Source: Elusimicrobiota bacterium (GTDB lineage Bacteria > Elusimicrobiota > Elusimicrobia > F11). From it: a stretch of 64,000 bases of DNA. Location of the stretch: NCBI GenBank assembly GCA_022072025.1, contig JAJVIP010000010.1:242050-306049 (forward strand), given 5' to 3'. Below are positions 31,755 through 42,587 of the stretch, piece by piece; positions within the stretch are counted from its first letter, which is position 1, and every line of letters begins with the position of its first letter. A program made the position numbers and the translations under genes. The notes beneath the pieces were generated by a model. It was not told the origin of the DNA, made no database searches, and saw nothing but the letters and a program-made list of their open reading frames with translations.

Positions 31755-33773
31755 TTATTTCGTGGTCATTTCGTAACTGCCGTCCCATTGGGGCGGCGGC
31801 GGATGAGCCACAAACGAACGGGCACGTTCCAAATAAACCCGGGTCACATGATCGTTGGGTTGGTAATCGAACACACTTTCGAAGGCCTCGATGGCTTCAG
31901 AAAAATGCCGTTGCCGGTAAAGCGCCAACCCTTGATGGTATCTCTTCCGGCCTTCTGCAATTTCTTCGAGGAGTTCCCCTTTTTTGCAGAGAACCTCAAA
32001 CACTTTACGGGGCTCTTTTTTTCCTTTAACGCGAATCAAATCCAAATCTCTTGCTTCGATATGGTCACGGGCTTTTTCGAAGGTTACATCCGAGACCATG
32101 ATGTGCGTGTGGTATTGTTTGTTGGCTCCTTCCAATCTTGAGGCGAGGTTGACCGCGTCTCCCATGACCGTGTAATCGAATTTTTCAATGGATCCCATAT
32201 TCCCCACCACCACCGTTCCGGTATTTATACCAACACGACAATCAATACTGGGGAGTCCTTTTTCCTGAAACTGCCGGTTAATCTCTGGCAATGCTTTTAA
32301 ACAATCCAGCGCAGCCAAACAGGCTTGCGTGGCGTGATTGGGTTGATCCACAGGCGCGTTCCAAAAGGCCATGATGCAGTCTCCGATGTATTTGTTAATA
32401 AGGCCATCATGTTGATGAATCACTTTGCTGAATTCATTGAGGCAATGATTCATAACTTCTACCAACTGAGTGGGTTTGAGCGCTTCGGACATGGACGTAA
32501 AACCGGCAATATCCAAAAAGAAAATAGAGACTTCTCTTTCTTCTCCTCCCAACTGTAATTTGCTGGGATCTTTGGTCAAAATATCAATAATTTTCGGAGA
32601 CAAATACTGCCGGAAACTTCCCTTAATCTTTCTTTTCTCTTTTTCTTCCACGAATAATCGATAGATCAACACGCCGCCATAGGACCCCACCATGACCAAC
32701 AGAGGCCCCACCATCGGCAGAATCAGATTCGAATGAGAAAAAAACCACAAGCAGAGCGCCAAATGGCTCCCCATCATAAAAGTGAAAAAAACCAACTTAA
32801 CCCAAGGAGAAAAACGGGTCAAAAGAAAACCCATCAACAAACCGACCACTAAAATATAAAGAGCCGCCCCATGGGTGGAGGTTTCATGCATGTAATTTTT
32901 GGTCAACAAATTGTCAACAATGTTGGCGTGAATGAGAACTCCCGGGTAAATGGGGACATAGGGAATGGCCTTAATATCAAACAGAGCGGCTGCCGTTCCC
33001 CCGACAAAAACAATTTTGTCTTTGAAGGCTTGAACGGTATTTATTTTTCTCTCTACCACATCGACGAATGAATAAGTTTTATAACTCTCTTCATGGGGGG
33101 AATAGGCGTAATTGATGAACAATTGGTTTTCGGCAAGAAGAGGATTGTTCGAAACCACCACTGGCAAAGAAGGCAACAAATCTTGGAATGTCACTTTTTG
33201 GGCCGCCGCCAAAGCAGCCACCGGAAGAGACGGATAAACTTCATCGCCCACAATTGAAAAGAGGTGCCCCCGCCTTGATACTCCATCGCGATCAGGAATA
33301 AAGTTAACAAAGCCCAAATAACTGTTTTCTCTTAAACTTTCGAAAGGAAACATGGGATCTTTTCCCAAAAGATGATGCTCCATAGAACCGCTAAAGAAAA
33401 AGGCGGAGGTCATAATTCCCGAATCTCCGGCGGATTTGGCAAGTTGAGCGTCTGACTCAGGATGCTGCTCGTCTTTTTCCGTGAAAAGCACATCAAAAGC
33501 CACCGATTTGGCGCCGGCGGCTTTTAGTTCATCAATGACTTTCGCATGATAGGAGCGAGGCCAAGGCCATCGCCCCAATTGGGCAATGGATTGTTCATCA
33601 ATGGCCACCACCACAATGTCTTTGTTAACGGGTCGTGAACCTCGTTTTTGAAAACGAAAATCCACGGACTTGAGTTCAAGGGAATCCAATCCATTAAAAG
33701 CATACAGGGCCAATACAAGAAGCGTTACAAATAAGCAGATGGCAAAACCCCGGAAAGAATGGTTTTTCAACAT
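31755..33773 (-). CDS. CHASE2-domain adenylate cyclase with C-terminal TPR-like helices
   Basis: 672 residues. One helix (10-28) anchors a CHASE2 sensor (about 30-295; V-D-x-[21 protein letters not shown] and [13 protein letters not shown] are typical). Three helices follow (303-319, 325-345, 352-372), then a class III cyclase domain (about 412-595). Metal ligands Asp421 and Asp465 are present. Lys461 and Asp539 fit adenine selection, and Asn542 and Arg546 are the transition-state pair, so it should make cAMP from ATP. Residues 610-655 resemble a TPR pair. ATG at 33773 overlaps the preceding gene's stop by seven bases (ATGTTGA), which fixes the start and implies coupling. It probably senses an envelope signal; the link to pili or glycans is inferred from position. 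Confidence 0.9.
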
Positions 33774-34717
33774 GTTCGGAACCATTGGATGGTGGCCTTT
33801 AATCCCTCCATTGGCGTAACTTTCGGTTTCCAATTTAAGATTTTACGCGCCGTCGAAATATCCGGTTGGCGAACTTTGGGGTCATCGATGGGAAGAGGGC
33901 GACGGACCAATTTACTTTTGCTGTGGCATAAACGAATAACAAGCCGGGCACATTCCTCAATGGTCATTTCTTTCGGGTTTCCGATGTTCACAGGAGAAGC
34001 ATAATCTGACAACAACAATCTCACAATACCTTCAATTTGATCATCGATGTAACAAAAGGACCGGGTTTGGCGGCCATCTCCGAAAATGGTGACCGGTTTA
34101 TTTTTAAGCGCCTGACTGATAAACGCTGGAATGGCGCGCCCATCCTTGGGTCGCATGCGGGGTCCGTAGGTATTAAATATTCTCACAATACGGGTGGGGA
34201 TTTTGTGGACGCGGTGATAGGCCATCACCAGGGCTTCAGCGAAACGCTTGGCTTCGTCGTACACGCCTCGCGGCCCCACCGGGTTGACATTGCCCCAATA
34301 GCTCTCCGGCTGCGGGTGAATCAGTGGATCCCCATACACTTCCGAGGTCGATGCCAACAAAAACCGTGCTTTTTTTTCTTTCGCCAACCCAAGCATTTTA
34401 TGGGTTCCAAGCGCGCCCACTTTGAGGGTCTGGATGGGAAACTCCAGATAGTCGATCGGACTGGCGGGACTAGCGAAATGCAAAATGGCATAGAGCGGAC
34501 CGGAGAGATAAAAATCATTCGTCACGTCGTGTTTGATGAATTCAAAATTCGCATGTTTGAAAAAGGATGCGATGTTGTCTTTGTTGCCCGTGATGAAATT
34601 GTCGACGCAAACAACTCGGGCCTCAAGACTTAAAAGTTTTTGGCACAAGTGGCTTCCCAAAAATCCAGCTCCGCCCGTTACCACCACCCGTTTGCCCTTC
34701 AAATTATTGATGTTCAA
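33767..34717 (-). CDS. uxs: UDP-glucuronate decarboxylase (UDP-xylose synthase)
   Basis: 316 residues, a short-chain dehydrogenase/reductase of the extended type. It converts UDP-glucuronate to UDP-xylose with bound NAD+. The NAD motif [10 protein letters not shown] is at residues 14-23. H-F-A-S-P-A-S-P, the T-S-E-V-Y-G-D-P catalytic Thr/Glu segment and Y-D-E-A-K (YxxxK) are all diagnostic for this enzyme over simple epimerases. I chose the TTG at 34717 because GGGAGG lies eight bases upstream and the length then matches the family. Longer frames run into the tadC 3' end. It follows the tad genes by 56 bases and overlaps the cyclase gene. It implies xylose- or uronate-containing surface glycans, perhaps decorating pili. 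Confidence 0.9.
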
Positions 34718-34773
34718 GACCGCGCCCTCCCAAAAATACTTGCGGCGCATTAGAACAAAAGAGTGAAAGCAGT

Positions 34774-35403
34774 TCAGTAAAAAAGTTTTCCTTGAGCGAG
34801 AGTCAGAAAAATGGGCGCAAGCAAGATGATCAAGACCGCCGGCAAAATAAAAACAAACATCGGGAACAACAAACGTAACCCAACCGTCTGCGCTCGCCTT
34901 TCCATTTGAGCCCATCTTTGTTGTCGGTGAGATCGGGCCTGATGCCTCAAAACTTCTCCCAATTTTTGGCCGTGATTCATGGCTTGTTCTATTAAGACAA
35001 GGGTTAAAGCCAAGGTTTCATCATCGAGACGCTCGGCGACTTCTCGAAAGGCCCGTTGACGAGGATACCCCCAATCAATGACTTTTTTTAAGACCGACAA
35101 ATCCTCTTTTAATATTCCCGGAACGCATTTTTCTACTCCCAGGGACCACGCTTGCTCCAAGGTGAGGCCCGCCGAAAGACCCACGCTAAACAAATCCAGA
35201 AAATCCGGAAATTGCTCCCGTCTTTGATCCCGGTGTGTTTTCCTGGAGAAAAAAAATTGCCGCCGACTCTTCAAAGCTCTCACGGGATCAATCGCGATAA
35301 AAAATTGTTGGCGGGCTCTTCTCTCTATGACCACGTCAAACCCCACCCAAACTATTTGACCCATCAACAATCCCGCCCCTATCGCGAACAACCCAGCCAT
35401 CAT
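34774..35403 (-). CDS. tadC: Tad pilus assembly inner-membrane protein TadC
   Basis: 209 residues. It has a GspF/T2SF domain: an N-terminal helix ([18 protein letters not shown]), a soluble helical part with [22 protein letters not shown] (the typical D-x-x-x-x-x-x-x-A-G-L-x-x-x-x-A pattern) and [20 protein letters not shown], and two C-terminal helices ending P[11 protein letters not shown]. With TadB it forms the platform through which TadA drives pilin assembly. ATG at 35403 overlaps the tadB stop (ATGA). It is shorter than typical TadC (about 300 residues) because the N-terminal region is reduced. Confidence 0.85.
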
Positions 35404-35891
35404 TTGAGTTGCGCCATCCTTTGAACAAGGGTGAGCCCCACTCCAATCGAAACACTCGACAACAGAATCAACGCCCACCCCAAAGAGGATTGAAACATGA
35501 CTTGAAGATATTCCGGAACAAAACAGGCATATCCCATCAAAAGCCCCACGGGCGTCAATCCCACCACCCAGGCTGACACTCGACCTTGGGCGGTAAGAGA
35601 TTTCAAACGATCCTTAAATTCTTTATTGGTTTGTAAAATCTGAGCGCATTCCTCCAGCAAGGGAACCGCTTGTCCTCCCATTTCTTGTGTGATGAGAAGT
35701 GTCGTTTTGGCCAATGTAAATTCAGAGCCTGGCATCAATTGATTGAGGCGTTCCTCCAATGATTTCCCGTCCTGTTTCTTTTCATAGCGACCGCCTTCTT
35801 GATCAAGCACATCCATAATTTTTTCCAGGGTTAAACCCGCCTTGAGCCCCCCGGCAATAAAAAACAACAAAGCTGGTCCTGGTTTAAACAT
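35400..35891 (-). CDS. tadB: Tad pilus assembly inner-membrane protein TadB (short)
   Basis: 163 residues. GspF/T2SF family: FFIAGGLKAGLTLEKIMDVL, then E-F-T-L-A-K-T-T-L-L-I-T-Q-E-M-G-G and EFKDRLKSLTAQGRVSAWVV (the R-x-x-A-Q-G-R-x-S-A-x-x-x motif is characteristic of TadB), and two C-terminal helices. Typical TadB proteins are about 300 residues; here the N-terminal third is missing, so the protein starts almost directly at the T2SF domain. ATG at 35891 lies inside the tadA stop region (eight-base overlap). It pairs with TadC downstream. Confidence 0.85.
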   Translation of the reverse strand: MFKPGPALLFFIAGGLKAGLTLEKIMDVLDQEGGRYEKKQDGKSLEERLNQLMPGSEFTLAKTTLLITQEMGGQAVPLLEECAQILQTNKEFKDRLKSLTAQGRVSAWVVGLTPVGLLMGYACFVPEYLQVMFQSSLGWALILLSSVSIGVGLTLVQRMAQLK

Positions 35892-37467
35892 GGAGAATTT
35901 CTTGAAGCTTCCGCTCTTGTCCATCCCGTTTCAAATAAACCACGAGATCTATTCCCGTCCGCACCTGTTCCCGAACCACGTCAAGAGGCCACTGTGGCGC
36001 ATGGAGCAAAATAAGAGATTCCAATCGTTTGAGGGCATCATGTGCTGAATTGGCATGGAGCGTCGTCATGGACCCATCATGCCCCGTGTTCATGGCCTGA
36101 ATCATGGGTATGACCTCCGCCCCGCGACATTCTCCAACGATCAATCGGTCAGGCCTCATGCGCAGCGCATTGACCACCAAATCCGCCATCGATATCGCGC
36201 CCAATCCTTCAGAGTTTCCGGATCGAGTCTCCATTCGAACCACATGAGGTTGTTGAATCTGAAGTTCAGCGGCATCTTCCAATGTGATGATTCTTTCGAA
36301 GGGAGGAATGCAAGCTGATAACACATTTAACAACGTGGTCTTCCCCGCCCCTGAATTGCCGGCCACAAGAATATTTTTTCTTTCGTGAACGGCGCGTTTT
36401 AACTGATCCGCCTGCCCGCCATTCAAGGTGCATGTCTTAAGCAAATCATTGAGTGATCGAAACAACGGTTTGAACCGCCGAATGGTCAGAAGAGGTCCGT
36501 TTAGTGACAAGGGAGGTAAAACCACGTTCACCCGCGATCCATCGGGCAATCGCACATCGCACAAAGGCGACGCATGATCCACGCGTCGTCCCATTTTTCC
36601 CACCACCCGATTCACAATTGTTCGCAATTGTTGTTCATTTTCAAAAACCACCGACGTTTTTTCCAGCACACCTTCTTTCTCCACAAATACATCTCTTATT
36701 CCATTGACCATGATCTCATTGAGCGAGGAGTCTTTCATTAATTTTTCGATGGGGCCCAACCCTTGGACTTGATCAAATATTTGTTGGCGAAGGTCGGCCA
36801 GATGCGAAACCGGACAAGATTCAATCTTCCATTCAGCCAATGTCGCATGAAGCGTTTGATCAAGCATTCCTTCCAAATCTCCATTTGGAATTGTGTCGAG
36901 AGCCCACAACTTCCTCGCCACTTGATCTCCCAACATTCGCCAATCCATTTCCTTCTCCCCAACCGAGACGACCGGTGTTTGTTCTTGAACCCAAGTTTTA
37001 ACCTGAGCCGCCATTTGGTGAATCGCTTGGAGCAAAGCAGAAGTGGAGTCCAATTCTTGGAGAGACTTCTTTTGGTTCACGGCCAAGGTGATCAACACCG
37101 GATCAAAAGGAAGTTTTGCCAAACAGGCTCCCAATGCACTCTCAATAATTTGAGAATCCAATTCCCCTTTGATTCCTTTATTCCAAAGAACCCACTGAAT
37201 ATCGGACTTACGAATCCCAAGAAACATCAATCGCCCCATCAACACCTGAGCTTGCCGAATATCGTCTATGTGAGGAGAGACGCCCACCAAACACTTGATC
37301 CTTCCGGGATCGCCCTCTTTGGGTAACTCCTCCAAACAGCGGGGCCAAACAACAAAAATTTCCTCTTTCCCAATAGCTTCGACAAATGATTCATATATAA
37401 CACCATCACCAAAACGCATGGGACGCGACGGGAAAAATGCCACGGTAGGACAATCTGAATGCGACAT
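35884..37467 (-). CDS. tadA: Fusion of a degenerate TadZ/CpaE-like domain with TadA/CpaF ATPase
   Basis: 527 residues from ATG at 37467, with AGGAGG ten bases upstream. Residues 1-165 look like a MinD/ParA-type TadZ domain: it has the family's C-terminal pattern (A-L-G-A-C-L-A-K-L-P-F-D-P, then L-A-V-N-Q-K-K-S-L-Q-E). The deviant Walker A (K-G-G-x-G-K-T) is absent; TVAFFPSRPMRFG stands in its place. Residues 180-527 are a CpaF/TadA secretion ATPase: Walker A GNSGAGKT (370-377), Asp box L-E-D-A-A-E-L, Walker B DRLIVGECRG (440-449) and the His box TGHDGSMTTLHAN (461-473). It powers pilus assembly at the inner face of the membrane. TadZ normally localises the complex at the pole as a separate protein; here localisation and motor appear joined. 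Confidence 0.88.
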   Translation of the reverse strand: MSHSDCPTVAFFPSRPMRFGDGVIYESFVEAIGKEEIFVVWPRCLEELPKEGDPGRIKCLVGVSPHIDDIRQAQVLMGRLMFLGIRKSDIQWVLWNKGIKGELDSQIIESALGACLAKLPFDPVLITLAVNQKKSLQELDSTSALLQAIHQMAAQVKTWVQEQTPVVSVGEKEMDWRMLGDQVARKLWALDTIPNGDLEGMLDQTLHATLAEWKIESCPVSHLADLRQQIFDQVQGLGPIEKLMKDSSLNEIMVNGIRDVFVEKEGVLEKTSVVFENEQQLRTIVNRVVGKMGRRVDHASPLCDVRLPDGSRVNVVLPPLSLNGPLLTIRRFKPLFRSLNDLLKTCTLNGGQADQLKRAVHERKNILVAGNSGAGKTTLLNVLSACIPPFERIITLEDAAELQIQQPHVVRMETRSGNSEGLGAISMADLVVNALRMRPDRLIVGECRGAEVIPMIQAMNTGHDGSMTTLHANSAHDALKRLESLILLHAPQWPLDVVREQVRTGIDLVVYLKRDGQERKLQEILHV

Positions 37468-37541
37468 AAAAAATCTCCCTCCTATATCTTCAGCGGAAGG
37501 AGGGATTCGCTGGGGAATTGCGTTCAACCCAAAAATTCGGG

Positions 37542-37886
37542 TTATTTATTCATTTTGATGCGAGGGTTTTTGAGGGAAGAATCATACCGAGGAGATTGAA
37601 CCATACTTCCATCGAAGTTCATGTTAACTTGGGCTTCAACCACGTCGACAAAATGTTTTACTTTATAAACACCCAACAAAAGAATGCCAATGACAATGAT
37701 GCCCACGGGGCCCTTGATGCGAAAGGAGGTTTGCCACCAATGAATCTTTATTTTGGGGGTCATCTCATTAAAACAATACAGACAGCAATAGGCTGATCGG
37801 GGGTTTTCCTTTTCACAGGATGGACAGATCCTGAAGGCATAAACCCTATTGGTTGATAATCTTTCATTTTGCATAGTTATGTTCAT
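37542..37886 (-). CDS. Zinc-ribbon single-pass membrane protein
   Basis: 114 residues. A cytoplasmic zinc ribbon with C21-P-S-C24 and C35-L-Y-C38 is followed by one helix (GPVGIIVIGILLLGVYKV, about 59-76) and a short extracytoplasmic tail. It lies between cpaB and the TadZ-TadA gene in the same direction and overlaps the cpaB 3' end by 23 bases, so it belongs to the operon. GAGG about ten bases upstream of ATG 37886 supports this start; ATG 37874 is possible. No family assignment; it may be a scaffold or quality-control factor for the Tad machine, by position only. Confidence 0.7.
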   Translation of the reverse strand: MNITMQNERLSTNRVYAFRICPSCEKENPRSAYCCLYCFNEMTPKIKIHWWQTSFRIKGPVGIIVIGILLLGVYKVKHFVDVVEAQVNMNFDGSMVQSPRYDSSLKNPRIKMNK

Positions 37887-38571
37887 ATAGAGGCGACCTC
37901 AAAATTAGACTTAACAATCCTGTGTGCATATTCTGATGCATCACTATGGCCTCGTCTGAACCAATCATAAGTGTAACCAGAATCGTGTCGGCCGCCAGAG
38001 GGGAGGAGAAGGGGGTGGTGGACCCACCCGAAGTGGCCTCCCATATTCGATCCCCCACCGCCAACACCCGAATTTGAGATAACACCCGCCTCGAATATCC
38101 CTTTGAAAATCCAACGACATCCACCACATCCCCTGGTTGGAGGAGACCGGCCACAGCCTGCTCAAGAGGTAGACGCAGAGACATTGCCACCTGCCCCGGT
38201 TCGAGAGACCAAGAAACCCCGATAAATTCCTGGGAATCGGAAATCACATGCCGGGTGACAAACTCTCCTTTTGGAATTCCCACCAACGCCATAAATTTGG
38301 GCACCCCCTTGGCATCGAGAAGCTCGTTTTTATTTTTCAAAACCCCTTTGGTTTCAAAGGGAGCTGGAATTTCAACTTCTTCGATCCAATCCATCAGAAG
38401 AGGCTTGCCAGAGGGAATAAATTTACGCGCCCTGAGAACCGTCGTCATTCTCAATGCTTCATTTTGTCGATTTTCTCTATTGCGGAAATAACCCAAAGCT
38501 CCCCCCATAAAAAAGATTCCACCCAAGATTGAGATCGCCATTTTTTTTTGAATCAACGAAAGTTGCGGCAC
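37864..38571 (-). CDS. cpaB: Flp pilus assembly protein CpaB/RcpC
   Basis: 235 residues. One N-terminal helix (MAISILGGIFFMGGALGYF), then an SAF domain (V-L-R-A-R-K-F-I-P-S-G-K-P-L, with LVGIPKGEFVTRHVI) and a C-terminal RcpC part with M-S-L-R-L-P-L-E-Q-A-V-A-G-L-L-Q-P-G-D-V-V-D, the family's most conserved segment. CpaB is a periplasmic protein that supports the outer-membrane secretin. I chose GTG at 38571: AGGAGG sits six bases upstream and the codon overlaps the preceding stop (TAGTG). A TTG 24 bases earlier lacks a ribosome-binding site. Confidence 0.9.
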   Translation of the reverse strand: MPQLSLIQKKMAISILGGIFFMGGALGYFRNRENRQNEALRMTTVLRARKFIPSGKPLLMDWIEEVEIPAPFETKGVLKNKNELLDAKGVPKFMALVGIPKGEFVTRHVISDSQEFIGVSWSLEPGQVAMSLRLPLEQAVAGLLQPGDVVDVVGFSKGYSRRVLSQIRVLAVGDRIWEATSGGSTTPFSSPLAADTILVTLMIGSDEAIVMHQNMHTGLLSLILRSPLYEHNYAK

Positions 38572-38954
38572 TAATTGCCTCCTTCTCTTTGACAAACAAC
38601 CCTATCAGACACCACCCATTTGGTGCGGGGAACAGGGGCTGTAACCTGGGTCTGGACCAGGTAATAAAATCGTGAAGCTGGCGTTTCCAGGTATCGTCCC
38701 AATCGAATTTTCCAAGCGCTCGCCTTGCCACCGGATAGAACGTTGGAAAATCCCTCACATTGATCAAAAACCAATGAATCGCTAACGCGTTTCGTGGATT
38801 GCAATAACGTTCCGTAACGAGCGACTTGATGGACGTGTTGCTTGAGCAATAAAATCTTTCCGATAAAAATAAATCCCAGAAAAAGAGCCCCCCAAATCCA
38901 CAAACTTAGAACGAATTCCACCATGAATTGTCCGCGCAGCTTCCTATATTTCAT
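38571..38954 (-). CDS. TadE-like pseudopilin
   Basis: 127 residues. The N-terminus R-G-Q-F-M-V-E-F-V-L-S-L-W-I-W-G matches the TadE pattern (short basic lead, G-Q, hydrophobic helix with Glu at +5). It is followed by a small periplasmic domain with two cysteines. TadE-type pseudopilins are processed by a prepilin peptidase and prime or adorn Flp pili. The start overlaps the upstream TadG-like gene by 11 bases. It lacks the A-A-V-E-x-A-L of the other TadE at 39675, so the two are distinct minor pilins. Confidence 0.75.
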   Translation of the reverse strand: MKYRKLRGQFMVEFVLSLWIWGALFLGFIFIGKILLLKQHVHQVARYGTLLQSTKRVSDSLVFDQCEGFSNVLSGGKASAWKIRLGRYLETPASRFYYLVQTQVTAPVPRTKWVVSDRVVCQREGGN

Positions 38955-39678
38955 GAGAGTCCTTTTTTAACTTCGCCCTATAATAAGGATACCGATGCGG
39001 TTGTAACGACTTCCCCAGCACCGCCTCTTTCCAAGAAAGCGGAAATCCTCCATTTCCGTGATTTTTTATCGCTAGATCATTTTCATCCACATCCCACACC
39101 AATTCTCCAAGCGCTGCTTGTTGGAAAATCCAATTGACTCCTTGGCGCACTGATAAGGAGCCTCGAACCACGTGCTGGGAATTCCCACTGGGATGGGGCG
39201 TACTCCACAGCCTTCTAAACCATCCTCCCTGAATAGTTTTCTGATTTCCATTTTCGTCTTCTATTACCAAAGGCTCCGCCACCACACCCAACCGAGAGGC
39301 CGACGGGTCGATGGTATTCAATGTTGTTCCCTGCGCCCCATTTGCATCATGAACCACCTTGATCACCGAGGTGATTCTTCCTTCGTATCCGGGAAGGGCT
39401 CTCTTGAGATCTCCGGCTTTCCTTTCGACCCTCTCCCATTCCACGGAAGGCAAAAACACCCGCGGCGTTGTTCCCGGTTCTCCAAAAGAAGCCCCATAAT
39501 CCCACCACCGTTCAGAGATCAATCGCAAGGCTTCGCCCCGCATTCGAAAAGAAGATAGGACCGAAACGTCGGCCATTGTCTGAGCTTTCTCGCTTGCCAG
39601 GATTCCTCGCCCAACATCCCCCCAAAACCAACCCAACGAAATTAAAGCCAGACTGATCAAAAGCATCATCCCGCTCAT
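38944..39678 (-). CDS. TadG-like minor pilin / Flp assembly protein
   Basis: 244 residues from ATG 39678, which overlaps the preceding stop (ATGA). An N-terminal helix (MMLLISLALISLGWFWGDVG) is followed by L-A-S-E-K-A-Q-T-M-A-D-V-S-V-L-S, echoing the L-Q-x-A-A-D-A-A-A-L-A segment of TadG. The remainder is a periplasmic domain of about 200 residues with no recognisable von Willebrand fold. The position between two TadE-like genes supports the assignment; sequence alone is weak. Confidence 0.65.
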   Translation of the reverse strand: MSGMMLLISLALISLGWFWGDVGRGILASEKAQTMADVSVLSSFRMRGEALRLISERWWDYGASFGEPGTTPRVFLPSVEWERVERKAGDLKRALPGYEGRITSVIKVVHDANGAQGTTLNTIDPSASRLGVVAEPLVIEDENGNQKTIQGGWFRRLWSTPHPSGNSQHVVRGSLSVRQGVNWIFQQAALGELVWDVDENDLAIKNHGNGGFPLSWKEAVLGKSLQPHRYPYYRAKLKKDSHEI

Positions 39679-40040
39679 AAACAAACTTCCCGCGCGTGAG
39701 CGGTCAAGGTCACCGCGTTGTAAAAAGATCGGATTAAGGTGACTGAGAAAACTCGGAGAGGACGATTGTGAAGGGGAAAACCGCGGGGTAAGGTGGGAAG
39801 ATCACGAATCTCAACTGTGCTGACCACCTCTACAGGCGCCACGGGAGACCCCGTTTGAAAAGGTTCAGAATCCATATCCATGGCCAACCTTCGCGCCAAC
39901 TGGGCGGCTTGGTGCTCAAGTTGCAGCTGACTTAGGAATAGATGCCCCAAGAGGACAAAAAAAACAATCAGAAGAGAAAGGAGAGGCGTGAGAAGAGCCA
40001 ACTCGACTGCGGCGGTGCCTCGGTTTCTTTTGGACTGCAT
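39675..40040 (-). CDS. tadE: TadE-like pseudopilin
   Basis: 121 residues. R-N-R-G-T-A-A-V-E-L-A-L-L-T-P-L-L is the canonical TadE signature: a basic leader, Gly before the cleavage site, Glu at +5 and a hydrophobic helix. L-E-H-Q-A-A-Q-L-A-R-R follows, then a short beta domain. ATG 40040 has GGAGA five bases upstream and is preferred over ATG 40052. It is the first clear pseudopilin in the cluster. Confidence 0.82.
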   Translation of the reverse strand: MQSKRNRGTAAVELALLTPLLSLLIVFFVLLGHLFLSQLQLEHQAAQLARRLAMDMDSEPFQTGSPVAPVEVVSTVEIRDLPTLPRGFPLHNRPLRVFSVTLIRSFYNAVTLTAHAREVCL

Positions 40041-40099
40041 AGGATTCTCCATCGAGGAGAGGGAAGGAAGGGTTAAACGTCGACGGTGCGGATCTTAAA

Positions 40100-40915
40100 T
40101 TATTTTCCTGATTCGTCAAACATTTTTTTTGATCGACGCTCCAGTCCCAACTGCTTCTTCTCAGCCAAGGATTTCAATTGAGTGAACAATTGATTGCTTT
40201 CCAAACGAAGCGCGGATTCGTCTTTGGCTCGTAGCGTGGAAAGTTGTTCCGCGAAAGATTCTTCCGATGAGTAATAAAGATCCCGCTTATTTTGAAAATG
40301 GGAAATTGACGCAGTGGAATCTGGAACCACCTGGGTGATCGTAGATCGCACAAGGGCCCATTTCCATTTAAACTGATCATTCTCCTTATCGGCTTCTCCT
40401 GACCAAGAAATGTCCCAACTCATTTTCGAATAAAGAGCCTCGTTCGAAAGGGATTTTTTTTCTGAGATAACGAGAGTTCGGTTCACGGTCACGGCATTTT
40501 TAACAAGAGTGGATTGTTGAACAACACCCCGAACAGGCGCAGAGGGGACATGGGTGGGGACCTGAACCTTTTCCGGAGAAGAGAGGGGCGTCGGAGATGT
40601 TGGAGAACCCGGCATGACTGAAACCGGAGCCCTGGGATTGGCCACCGTCACCGATGATGCTGCGATCACGGGAGCCTGGCTATCACTGCGAATAATGGGT
40701 CGGGTGGATTTGGGAACAATATCTCGATTGACCTTTTGGACTTTGTCTTTGTGAACCCGCAACACCATGTTCGAACCCATCAGGATGGTGTATTCCTGAG
40801 AATCTTCTCCTGTTATTTTACCCTGGATGGTTTTTCCTTCTTTAAGAATAATTTCATCAGAGAACAAAAGCGGAGAAATGAGCATCATCATTGATGCCAA
40901 TCTCAACACAGGCAT
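40100..40915 (-). CDS. Secreted protein with N-terminal beta domain and proline-rich linker
   Basis: About 271 residues from ATG 40915. MPVLRLASMMMLISPLLFS is a signal peptide, followed by D-E-I-I-L-K-E-G-K-T-I-Q-G-K-I, a small beta domain seen at the N-terminus of many exported proteins of unknown function in delta-proteobacteria and candidate phyla. A Pro/Ser/Val-rich linker (about 75-130) precedes a helical C-terminal half rich in Lys, Glu and Ser (about 180-271), possibly a coiled coil. No cysteine is seen in the mature part. A longer TTG-initiated form would overlap the Omp85 gene by about 50 bases. It lies between the barrel gene and the pseudopilins, so a periplasmic role in the Tad envelope complex is possible but unproven. 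Confidence 0.65.
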   Translation of the reverse strand: MPVLRLASMMMLISPLLFSDEIILKEGKTIQGKITGEDSQEYTILMGSNMVLRVHKDKVQKVNRDIVPKSTRPIIRSDSQAPVIAASSVTVANPRAPVSVMPGSPTSPTPLSSPEKVQVPTHVPSAPVRGVVQQSTLVKNAVTVNRTLVISEKKSLSNEALYSKMSWDISWSGEADKENDQFKWKWALVRSTITQVVPDSTASISHFQNKRDLYYSSEESFAEQLSTLRAKDESALRLESNQLFTQLKSLAEKKQLGLERRSKKMFDESGK

Positions 40916-40952
40916 GAAAAGATTCTTTCGTCCGGTTGGCTTATGCGCAATG

Positions 40953-42587
40953 TTACTGATCAAATTTTCGTACACGTCTGTCTCCAAATGAAAGGTCGGC
41001 TCCAATATTTAAAACAAAACGAGACTTTCGGTCATTGTCTTGAAGCGCGTAAGCCACATCGATGCGAATCAACCCCGGGTCAACCGATCGGGAAGGGGCC
41101 AATCTCAATCCCAAACCCACATCCGATTTAAATTGTGGAAATTTTGGAAATACTCCATCGGCCCACACAGCGCCCGTATCCGCAAAGAGGGCCCAGCCGA
41201 TGTTTACCAGGTGCAGCCATTCATACAATACGACTTGTCGATTCTCAAGCGCCAACAACATTTTATTGGGGCCACTGAATTGTCGAACCGAATAACCGCG
41301 CAAGCCATTTTCCCCACCCAACAAAAACTGTTTTTCTGGATCCAAATTTTTGGAATGAATATATTCACCTCGTAAACTTGCCGTGTTTTCTGGCATCCAA
41401 TTCAAAAGGAAATATTGACTGCGAATTCGCATCACCCCATCACGAACCGCCTCTTCTTCTTGTCGCCCATCCATTTTCAATAAATTGAACCACACCTGAT
41501 TTTCTTGAAAATGAAAAGTTTTTCCCGCCGTCAATCTTAAAACAACAGAGTCGTCTGTGGCTCCAAAATGCTTATTGGAAGGGCCCCCTTCAAATGAAAT
41601 CATTTCTCCCAAGTTAATATCTTCATCTCGGTCAAAGGTGGTCACGCCACGGACCTTATGAAAAATATATTTTTCATAATCAAAACCCAACAAAACAGGA
41701 TTGATGGCGCGCTTCGAAGGGAGCGTGGGAGCCGCCGGGCCTTGAACGTCGTAAAATTCATCGATATTGTGCTCATGCGCTAAGCTGATGCGGAGCGTGT
41801 GTTTTTGTTTGGCCAACAAGGCAACCGAAGAAAAAATCCTCATTTCACGGGTTTTCTGTCCGAAACTGGCCACTTCTTCGCCCCCGCTGAACATACGCCC
41901 TTCGTCTTCCCGGTCCACAATTGACACACCCTCTGAATGGCGCGACAGCGCAGAAAAATAAGGACGTTCCAAGTTTCCTTCCCATTCCCGCCCTTTCTCA
42001 TCTTTACCGTACCCGCCGAACAAGTCCCAACGTGTTCCGAAAAGCTGAGGGTCCTGATAGGAAAATCCCCGCGTGGTGCGATCGATGTTTTTTCGTAAAA
42101 AAGCGCCAAGCACCTTGCCTTGACCCAAAAAGTTTTTTTCCAGAAATCCAATCCCGTAGGAATTTCTTCCGCCGGCCACACTGTAGGACATTTGAACGGA
42201 GGTGGTCCAAACGTCCTCTGTTTGAATCAGAATGTCCACCCGGCCATCATAAGGAGTTTGTGGAATGACATTTACATAGCGAAAAATGGGTCGTCCACGC
42301 AGAATGCGTTCGGATTCTTTAATCAATTCAGGGTTGAACTCATCTCCCTCTTTAAATAGCAATTCCTGGCGAATGTAGGTTTCCTGAGTGACGATGTGTA
42401 ATTTATTGGCCCATGAGTAGGGGAAACGGTGATCAATTGCGGTGCCCGTATCAAAAACATTTTTTCGATTGACGACAATCCGGCCGATCACAAGACGAGA
42501 GTTTTCTGCTGGGAGATTTGGGGTAACAGAAAAAATTAAAAAGAGAAATAAGTAAGACGGCCGTTTCAAAACAAGAGAAACAATCAA
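40953..42587 (-). CDS. Omp85/BamA-superfamily outer-membrane beta-barrel protein
   Basis: Up to 544 residues. Residues 8-27 form a signal peptide (KRPSYLFLFLIFSVTPNLPA). One POTRA-like domain covers about 31-130 (TYIRQELLFKEGDEFNPELIKESERILR is typical). A 16-strand-type barrel follows, with the conserved L-G-G-E-N-G-L-R-G-Y (the VRGF/Y lid-lock motif) about 110 residues from the end, and a C-terminal strand ending near R-V-R-K-F-D-Q. With one POTRA rather than five, it is closer to TamA/ShlB/D15-like translocators than to full BamA. No ATG exists near the 5' end; TTG at 42587 or TTG at 42569 must be used. It could insert or export surface proteins. Confidence 0.85.
   Translation of the reverse strand: MIVSLVLKRPSYLFLFLIFSVTPNLPAENSRLVIGRIVVNRKNVFDTGTAIDHRFPYSWANKLHIVTQETYIRQELLFKEGDEFNPELIKESERILRGRPIFRYVNVIPQTPYDGRVDILIQTEDVWTTSVQMSYSVAGGRNSYGIGFLEKNFLGQGKVLGAFLRKNIDRTTRGFSYQDPQLFGTRWDLFGGYGKDEKGREWEGNLERPYFSALSRHSEGVSIVDREDEGRMFSGGEEVASFGQKTREMRIFSSVALLAKQKHTLRISLAHEHNIDEFYDVQGPAAPTLPSKRAINPVLLGFDYEKYIFHKVRGVTTFDRDEDINLGEMISFEGGPSNKHFGATDDSVVLRLTAGKTFHFQENQVWFNLLKMDGRQEEEAVRDGVMRIRSQYFLLNWMPENTASLRGEYIHSKNLDPEKQFLLGGENGLRGYSVRQFSGPNKMLLALENRQVVLYEWLHLVNIGWALFADTGAVWADGVFPKFPQFKSDVGLGLRLAPSRSVDPGLIRIDVAYALQDNDRKSRFVLNIGADLSFGDRRVRKFDQ

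What the first reader, a model, noticed from the sequence alone, without database searches (positions are those of the whole stretch)
35884..37467. TadZ-like domain fused to the TadA motor, with its own Walker A lost
The first 165 residues match the C-terminal part of MinD/ParA-type TadZ but lack the nucleotide loop, and continue directly into a complete CpaF ATPase. In most Tad systems these are separate proteins. The fusion would fix the motor to the localising module and make localisation independent of ATP.
Basis: partly seen in the sequence, partly recalled or inferred. Interest (0 to 1): 0.62.

Follow-up and report, generated by a model that had tools for sequence, protein, structure and literature searches.

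The report
Pilus motor fused to degenerate positioning domain
A bacterial pilus motor carries, in the same protein, the remains of the partner protein that normally positions it; the fusion turns out to be usual in this phylum and to have lost its ATP-binding loop repeatedly, with this copy the most reduced of those examined.

Summary
The minus-strand ORF 37467..35884 (527 aa) is a TadA/CpaF motor with its motifs intact (residues ~226-527), preceded by a domain whose residues ~58-163 are homologous to the C-terminal half of a MinD/ParA-type TadZ. It has no P-loop. The homology needed bridging profiles: the three family N-domains match fused domains from other classes of the phylum (hhalign E 9e-12), and those match the ParA-family structure 3ea0 (E 4e-28).

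The fusion is not peculiar to this genome. TadZ-TadA fusion is the common architecture of the phylum (probably Elusimicrobiota). In the window's class, 46 of 52 sampled TadA loci carry a full domain with a P-loop. In other classes, 18 of 18 fused loci read have lost the canonical loop. The window's family lost the loop; the window's copy is the smallest seen. No stand-alone TadZ was found in its genome.

A published survey of 292 CpaF orthologs lists three architectures and no TadZ fusion. Best reading: a non-nucleotide-binding TadZ module built into each motor subunit as a docking or assembly domain. ATP-independent localisation is inference. New variant of a known kind.

The parts
35884..37467 (-). 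Fused degenerate-TadZ/TadA motor ORF, 527 aa plus stop
   Evidence: ORF and translation; conserved order in two family members
37478..37483 (-). Shine-Dalgarno AGGAGG, 10 nt before the ATG
   Evidence: read directly
37297..37467 (-). Residues 1-57: possible remnant of beta1-(lost P-loop)-alpha1-beta2
   Evidence: position in multiple alignment; pairwise not significant
36979..37296 (-). Residues 58-163: C-terminal half of a MinD/ParA-type TadZ domain
36793..36978 (-). Residues 164-225: linker and the region where CpaF has its three-helix bundle (assignment by position and by comparison with PMC12019362)
   Evidence: inference
35887..36792 (-). Residues 226-527: TadA/CpaF NTD and ATPase domain
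   Evidence: PF00437, TIGR03819
36337..36360 (-). TadA Walker A GNSGAGKT (residues 370-377)
36124..36162 (-). TadA RMRPDRLIVGECR, Walker B region (residues 436-448)
36052..36081 (-). TadA His box HDGSMTTLHA (residues 463-472)
35400..35924 (-). TadB-like platform protein (T2SSF)
   Evidence: PF00482 E 3.4e-6
34774..35478 (-). TadC-like platform protein (T2SSF)
   Evidence: PF00482 E 1e-14
37542..37886 (-). Small protein: CxxC...CxxC ribbon plus one hydrophobic helix, between cpaB and the fusion
37864..38595 (-). CpaB/RcpC
   Evidence: TIGR03177 E 5.8e-21, PF16976 E 1.5e-12
38571..38954 (-). TadE-like protein (weak)
   Evidence: PF07811 E 0.012, below cut-off
38944..39684 (-). Tad/TadG-like protein (weak)
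   Evidence: PF13400 E 0.048, below cut-off
39675..40052 (-). TadE
   Evidence: PF07811 E 2.4e-6

Best explanation
The gene encodes a Tad pilus motor subunit to which TadZ, the MinD/ParA-type positioning protein, has been fused at the N-terminus. The fusion is old and phylum-wide. In this lineage the TadZ part has become a non-nucleotide-binding module: P-loop gone, middle of the fold deleted in the window's copy, C-terminal half kept. Because TadA works as a hexamer, the fusion delivers six TadZ modules per motor by construction. I propose that they form a permanent ring or collar docked on the motor, which tethers it to membrane or platform partners and helps assemble it there. Separate, ATP-switched TadZ dimers would then not be needed. 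Shown: the fusion, homology of residues ~58-163, loss of the loop, an intact motor active-site sequence, conserved gene order, and no stand-alone TadZ found in the genome. Inferred: lack of ATP binding, ring formation, docking role, ATP-independent placement.
For: Homology by two profile routes with controls. The bridging family is MinD/ParA fold: A3 hits 3ea0 at E 4.1e-28, MinD at 3e-18, FleN at 2e-10. Same fusion in 46 of 52 sampled class loci with a P-loop, 3 of 52 without (two of the window's family, one other), and in 18 of 18 other-class loci read. The domain has stayed in frame in three genera of the family while the TadAs diverged strongly (tree branches 0.5-0.8), so it is probably under selection. 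ParA-like proteins of the window's genome are Soj beside ParB, two Mrp and a Wzc/CpsD-like one, not TadZ. Gene order CpaB - small ribbon protein - fusion - TadB - TadC is kept in three of three family members with readable context. In Caulobacter, six CpaE (TadZ) dimers were fitted as a ring around the CpaF hexamer in situ, and predicted CpaE-CpaF contacts are reported (PMC13170226, passages).
Against: No structure of the domain: single-sequence AlphaFold2 gave mean pLDDT 54.9 and pTM 0.49, Foldseek found nothing at E <= 1e-3, and VIA-align's best rows were TIM-barrel enzymes at Z <= 7. The class-standard fused domain alone does not match the window domain, so descent from it is indirect. One relative (G016) has a TadA of this group with no extension at all, so the domain can be lost. 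No localisation, binding or pilus data exist for these organisms here.
Confidence: 0.6

Rival explanations
1. Relic: once TadZ was fused, its ATPase became unnecessary and the domain is decaying without a function, on the way to complete loss.
For: The window copy is the most reduced one read (about 165 aa against 237-249 in its two relatives), and a related TadA in G016 has no extension. P-loops in other classes are in many stages of decay.
Against: Residues 58-163 are conserved across three genera far beyond shuffles (0 of 2000 against L014 and against a different class; W hit at 1.9e-13 by a profile of the other two) and never broken by a stop. A neutral relic should not keep half of a fold across that divergence.
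Confidence: 0.2
2. Motor regulator: the domain no longer has to do with placement but gates TadA's own active sites or the switch between extension and retraction.
For: In CpaF, loss of the disordered N-terminal segment (aa 1-78) reduces retraction, and extensions could reach the nucleotide pockets (PMC11300603, passages). The domain sits at that end of the motor.
Against: Nothing in the sequence points to it; the kept part is the TadZ fold and not a disordered gate.
Confidence: 0.15
3. The fusion in the window's family is a separate event: a TadZ-like protein was joined to a divergent TadA independently of the fusion seen in the rest of the phylum, or the whole gene was acquired.
For: The family's TadA sits on a long branch away from class-standard TadAs, and G007 has both a class-standard intact fusion (C53) and a TadA of 56% identity to the window's with a degenerate N-domain (C73).
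Against: The window's domain matches fused domains of other classes far better (E 9e-12) than the mixed profile of class-standard and stand-alone TadZ (E 1.8e-5); one old fusion is simpler. Long branches make the tree's placement unsure.
Confidence: 0.25
4. The domain is a MinD/FleN- or other ParA-type protein and not TadZ proper.
For: It lacks the receiver-like domain of TadZ/CpaE; MinD and FleN structures are also hit by the bridging profile.
Against: The best structure is 3ea0, ten orders of magnitude ahead of MinD; class-standard fused domains match stand-alone TadZ encoded next to tadA at E 2e-16; it is joined to TadA, where TadZ acts.
Confidence: 0.1

Closest known systems
TadA/CpaF motor ATPase of Tad pili
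   Same: Full motor domains, Walker A, Walker B region and His box; followed by tadB and tadC genes
   Different: An extra ~150-residue TadZ-type domain at the N-terminus; none of the three architectures (no extension, disordered, FHA) reported for 292 orthologs in PMC12019362 (section 10 read)
TadZ/CpaE, MinD/ParA-type positioning protein
   Same: Homologous C-terminal half of the fold; same partner
   Different: Not a separate protein; no receiver domain; no nucleotide loop; middle of the domain deleted. Stand-alone TadZ keeps an atypical loop (KGGxG, canonical Lys replaced in 4 of 4 read)
Intact TadZ-TadA fusions of the same class (for example G051)
   Same: Same order of domains, same downstream tadB/tadC
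   Different: Full ~250-aa domain with PKEG[VA]G[KR][TS] loop; secretin gene directly upstream in G051, elsewhere in the window's genome
Fused TadZ-TadA of other classes of the phylum (for example G328, G334)
   Same: Nearest relatives found of the window's domain outside its family; canonical loop also lost
   Different: Domain full length (about 250 aa) and loop decayed rather than deleted

Membership tests
TadA/CpaF motor ATPase | T2SSE/TadA-family domain with Walker A, Walker B region and His box | tested here: met
   PF00437 E 8.6e-54; TIGR03819 E 2e-91 but 306.7 bits, under its curated cut-off of 373; motifs at 370, 436, 463
TadA/CpaF motor ATPase | Encoded with tadB and tadC | tested here: met
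   PF00482 in both downstream genes; order conserved
TadZ/CpaE | MinD/ParA-type domain related to TadZ by sequence profile | tested here: met
   For residues ~58-163 only, by profiles
TadZ/CpaE | Deviant Walker A loop (atypical in TadZ) | tested here: not met
   No KGGxG or GK[TS] in residues 1-165
TadZ/CpaE | N-terminal receiver-like domain | tested here: not met
   ORF starts 57 residues before the TadZ-like half; upstream gene is unrelated and conserved
TadZ/CpaE | Separate protein | tested here: not met
   One ORF with TadA; no stand-alone TadZ among ParA-like hits in the genome
TadZ/CpaE | Binds ATP, dimerises, goes to a cell pole | not testable with these tools
   Biochemistry and microscopy needed
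CpaF architecture classes I-III (PMC12019362) | N-terminus is absent, disordered, or disordered plus FHA | tested here: not met
   N-terminus is a TadZ-type domain; no FHA hit in Pfam
Phylum-wide TadZ-TadA fusion | TadZ-type domain N-terminal to TadA in one frame | tested here: met
MinD/ParA fold by structure | Predicted fold matches a MinD/ParA structure | tested here: inconclusive
   Low-confidence model; ArsA/Get3-type chains lead Foldseek at E >= 0.09, VIA-align lists TIM barrels

The most novel reading that the evidence does not exclude
A fourth architectural class of Tad motor, standard in a whole phylum: TadZ is a structural ring of the motor hexamer at 6:6 stoichiometry. Once fused, its ATP switch becomes dispensable and is lost repeatedly, in a reductive series from intact loop, through lost lysine and lost loop, to half a domain (the window) and finally to no domain (G016). 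TadZ's essential job would then be docking to the motor and not ATP-driven self-positioning.
Probability: 0.35. Interest if true: 0.7.

Novelty: new variant of a known kind. Interest (0 to 1): 0.5.

Why it matters
TadZ/CpaE is thought to mark where Tad pili are built and to recruit the rest of the machine, but what its weak, atypical ATP site contributes is unclear. A phylum in which it is covalently part of the motor, with natural versions from an intact loop to half a domain, is a ready-made series for asking whether placement needs ATP switching or only docking. It also gives a fixed stoichiometry to compare with the six CpaE dimers fitted around CpaF in Caulobacter. The fusion may also make TadZ look absent in gene inventories that expect a separate tadZ gene (inference).

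Tried and rejected
Single-sequence searches of residues 1-161 against PDB and of N-domains against Pfam found nothing useful; only profiles worked. An early hhalign of the three N-domains against class-standard domains failed or was weak (E 0.69; 0.0031 and 0.0012), and the class-standard HMM alone does not hit the window domain. I keep these as results against simple descent from the class-standard form. Structure prediction was uninformative. A first frame extraction ignored strand and was discarded (redone); a motif filter was too strict.

Rejected: frameshift or missing upstream half (the upstream gene is unrelated and conserved in two relatives, which also lack a loop); ordinary TadA N-terminal domain; a second intact TadZ in the genome.

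Rows and choices: the TadA tree used 47 rows, including 18 of the 46 class loci with a loop plus G007:C53. A3 used 11 of 18 other-class loci. The 52 class loci are the best-scoring ones fetched of 208 genomes with a match, not a random sample. The 18 other-class loci were found with TadZ-domain queries, so they do not measure how often TadA is fused there. Two class loci were cut by contig ends. Outside the phylum I looked only at four loci (L009-L012) and at plasmids (one weak record); the fusion elsewhere is untested.

Full report
WHAT IS THERE. Its C-terminal 300 residues are a Tad pilus motor: PF00437 E 8.6e-54 and TIGR03819 E 2e-91, the latter under its curated cut-off. Walker A (GNSGAGKT, 370), RMRPDRLIVGECR (436) and HDGSMTTLHA (463) are intact (that these are the motor's catalytic boxes is recalled). 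It lies among CpaB, TadE/TadG-like, TadB and TadC genes.

THE EXTRA DOMAIN. Four ordinary TadAs have 63-85 residues before a common point in the motor; the window's has 217, so about 150 residues are extra. Alone they match nothing in Pfam or PDB. Two relatives of the same family (G001, G002) have longer versions of 237-249 aa, also without a loop. The profile of the three (A1) hits 3ea0, a ParA-family ATPase, at E 0.011, over its C-terminal half. In 340 genomes of the phylum, A1's matches outside its own family include ten loci that are 590-744 aa TadA frames of other classes, E from 4e-8 to 0.027; a few weaker, broken or short matches elsewhere look like chance.

A profile of 11 such fused domains (A3) hits 3ea0 at E 4.1e-28, MinD at 3e-18 and FleN at 2.4e-10. 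A1 against A3 gives probability 97.4%, E 9.1e-12, over window residues 55-159. An HMM of 18 fused domains hits the window at E 3.5e-7; the best of 2000 shuffles and 152 window ORFs is E 17. Adding G001 and G002 brings the window to 4.3e-14, residues 60-155. So residues ~58-163 are the C-terminal half of a MinD/ParA-type TadZ. The first 57 residues fit beta1-loop-alpha1-beta2 in the alignment, but shuffles do not support this. The loop, its signature lysine and the middle of the domain are gone.

HOW UNUSUAL. The fusion is the rule here. In the window's class, 208 of 235 genomes have a TadA match. Of 52 TadA loci read, 45 carry an N-terminal MinD/ParA domain with a PKEGxGK[TS] loop, one with GR in place of GK, 3 an extension without a loop, 1 none, and 2 are cut by contig ends. 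A fused domain of another class matches in 202 of 334 phylum genomes at E <= 1e-3, mostly in long frames (list truncated). In 18 of 18 other-class fused loci read, the loop is decayed: KGGxGQT in five, more altered in the rest. Four of four stand-alone TadZ from other phyla, encoded just upstream of tadA, also replace the canonical lysine but keep KGGxG. PMC6668835 describes TadZ as having an atypical Walker A that binds ATP with low ATPase activity (passages). The window's family goes further: whole loop lost, and in the window's copy the domain is shortest.

The phylum is probably Elusimicrobiota. G051 is a single contig of 1,643,562 bp, which I recall as the size of the Elusimicrobium minutum genome; no call confirms it. 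PMC6668835 reports Tad systems in Elusimicrobia.

ORIGIN. On a TadA tree the family is one clade (100/100) on a long branch; next come G007:C73, with a degenerate N-domain, and G016, with none (95/70). G007 also has a class-standard intact fusion. Whether the window's family descends from one old phylum-wide fusion or from a second one is open. The domain evidence favours kinship with other-class fusions over class-standard ones. A reductive series from intact loop to no domain is visible, but its order is inferred.

CONTEXT. CpaB - small ribbon protein - fusion - TadB - TadC - epimerase - CHASE2 cyclase is kept in G001 and G002. The genome's other ParA-like proteins are Soj beside ParB, two Mrp and a Wzc/CpsD-like protein (names by eye). 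A short Tad-type secretin lies elsewhere (C7:242850, beside tpiA and rpiB, names by eye; also in G002), whereas in G051 it directly precedes the fusion. No Flp pilin was recognised in G000-G002 or G051.

HOW IT MAY WORK. In situ, six CpaE dimers were fitted around the CpaF hexamer of Caulobacter (PMC13170226, passages). A fusion imposes one TadZ per motor subunit. With no loop, ATP-switched dimerisation is unlikely, so a fixed docking or assembly ring is my best reading; relic and motor-regulator readings remain.

NOVELTY. PMC12019362 (section 10 read) sorts 292 CpaF orthologs into three classes: no extension, disordered, and FHA. No TadZ fusion is named. Searches for TadZ+TadA+fusion, CpaE+CpaF+fused, TadZ+'single polypeptide', Elusimicrobi+'Tad pil', and Elusimicrobiota/'type IV pil'/TadA (listings only, plus passages of PMC6668835) showed no report of it. 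Subscription papers, including the TadZ structure paper, were not held. Verdict: a new variant of a known kind, moderately interesting.

Noticed in passing
37542-37886: Small conserved protein with CPxC-x10-CxxC ribbon and one hydrophobic helix, between cpaB and the fusion in all three readable family members. It recalls the bitopic zinc-ribbon pilus-pole protein ZitP of Caulobacter (PMC5182063, passages), with different spacing and no DUF3426 shown; a candidate membrane partner of the fused motor.
   Followed up: partly
31755-34915: An epimerase and a CHASE2-adenylate-cyclase-like gene (domain names by eye) follow tadC in the same order in G001 and G002 (about 73% and 60% identity).
   Followed up: partly
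L157:6836-7579 (G000:C7): Short Tad-type secretin separated from the pilus cluster and sitting beside tpiA and rpiB (by eye), also in G002.
   Followed up: partly
L025 / L074 (G051): In G051 the fused TadZ loop reads GPKEGAGRTT: arginine in place of the canonical lysine, unlike 45 other class loci.
   Followed up: no
L073:432-1709 (G016): TadA directly after what looks like the end of a CpaB gene with no TadZ extension; possible complete loss of the domain (genome 81% complete).
   Followed up: partly
L072 and L071 (G007): One genome with two long Tad motors: an intact-loop fusion (GPQAGVGKTT) and one with a degenerate N-domain.
   Followed up: partly
40100-41005: Conserved gene upstream of the Tad cluster with an LA_0442-type N-terminal domain (NF047433 E 6e-10, below cut-off), kept in order in G001 and G002.
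   Followed up: no
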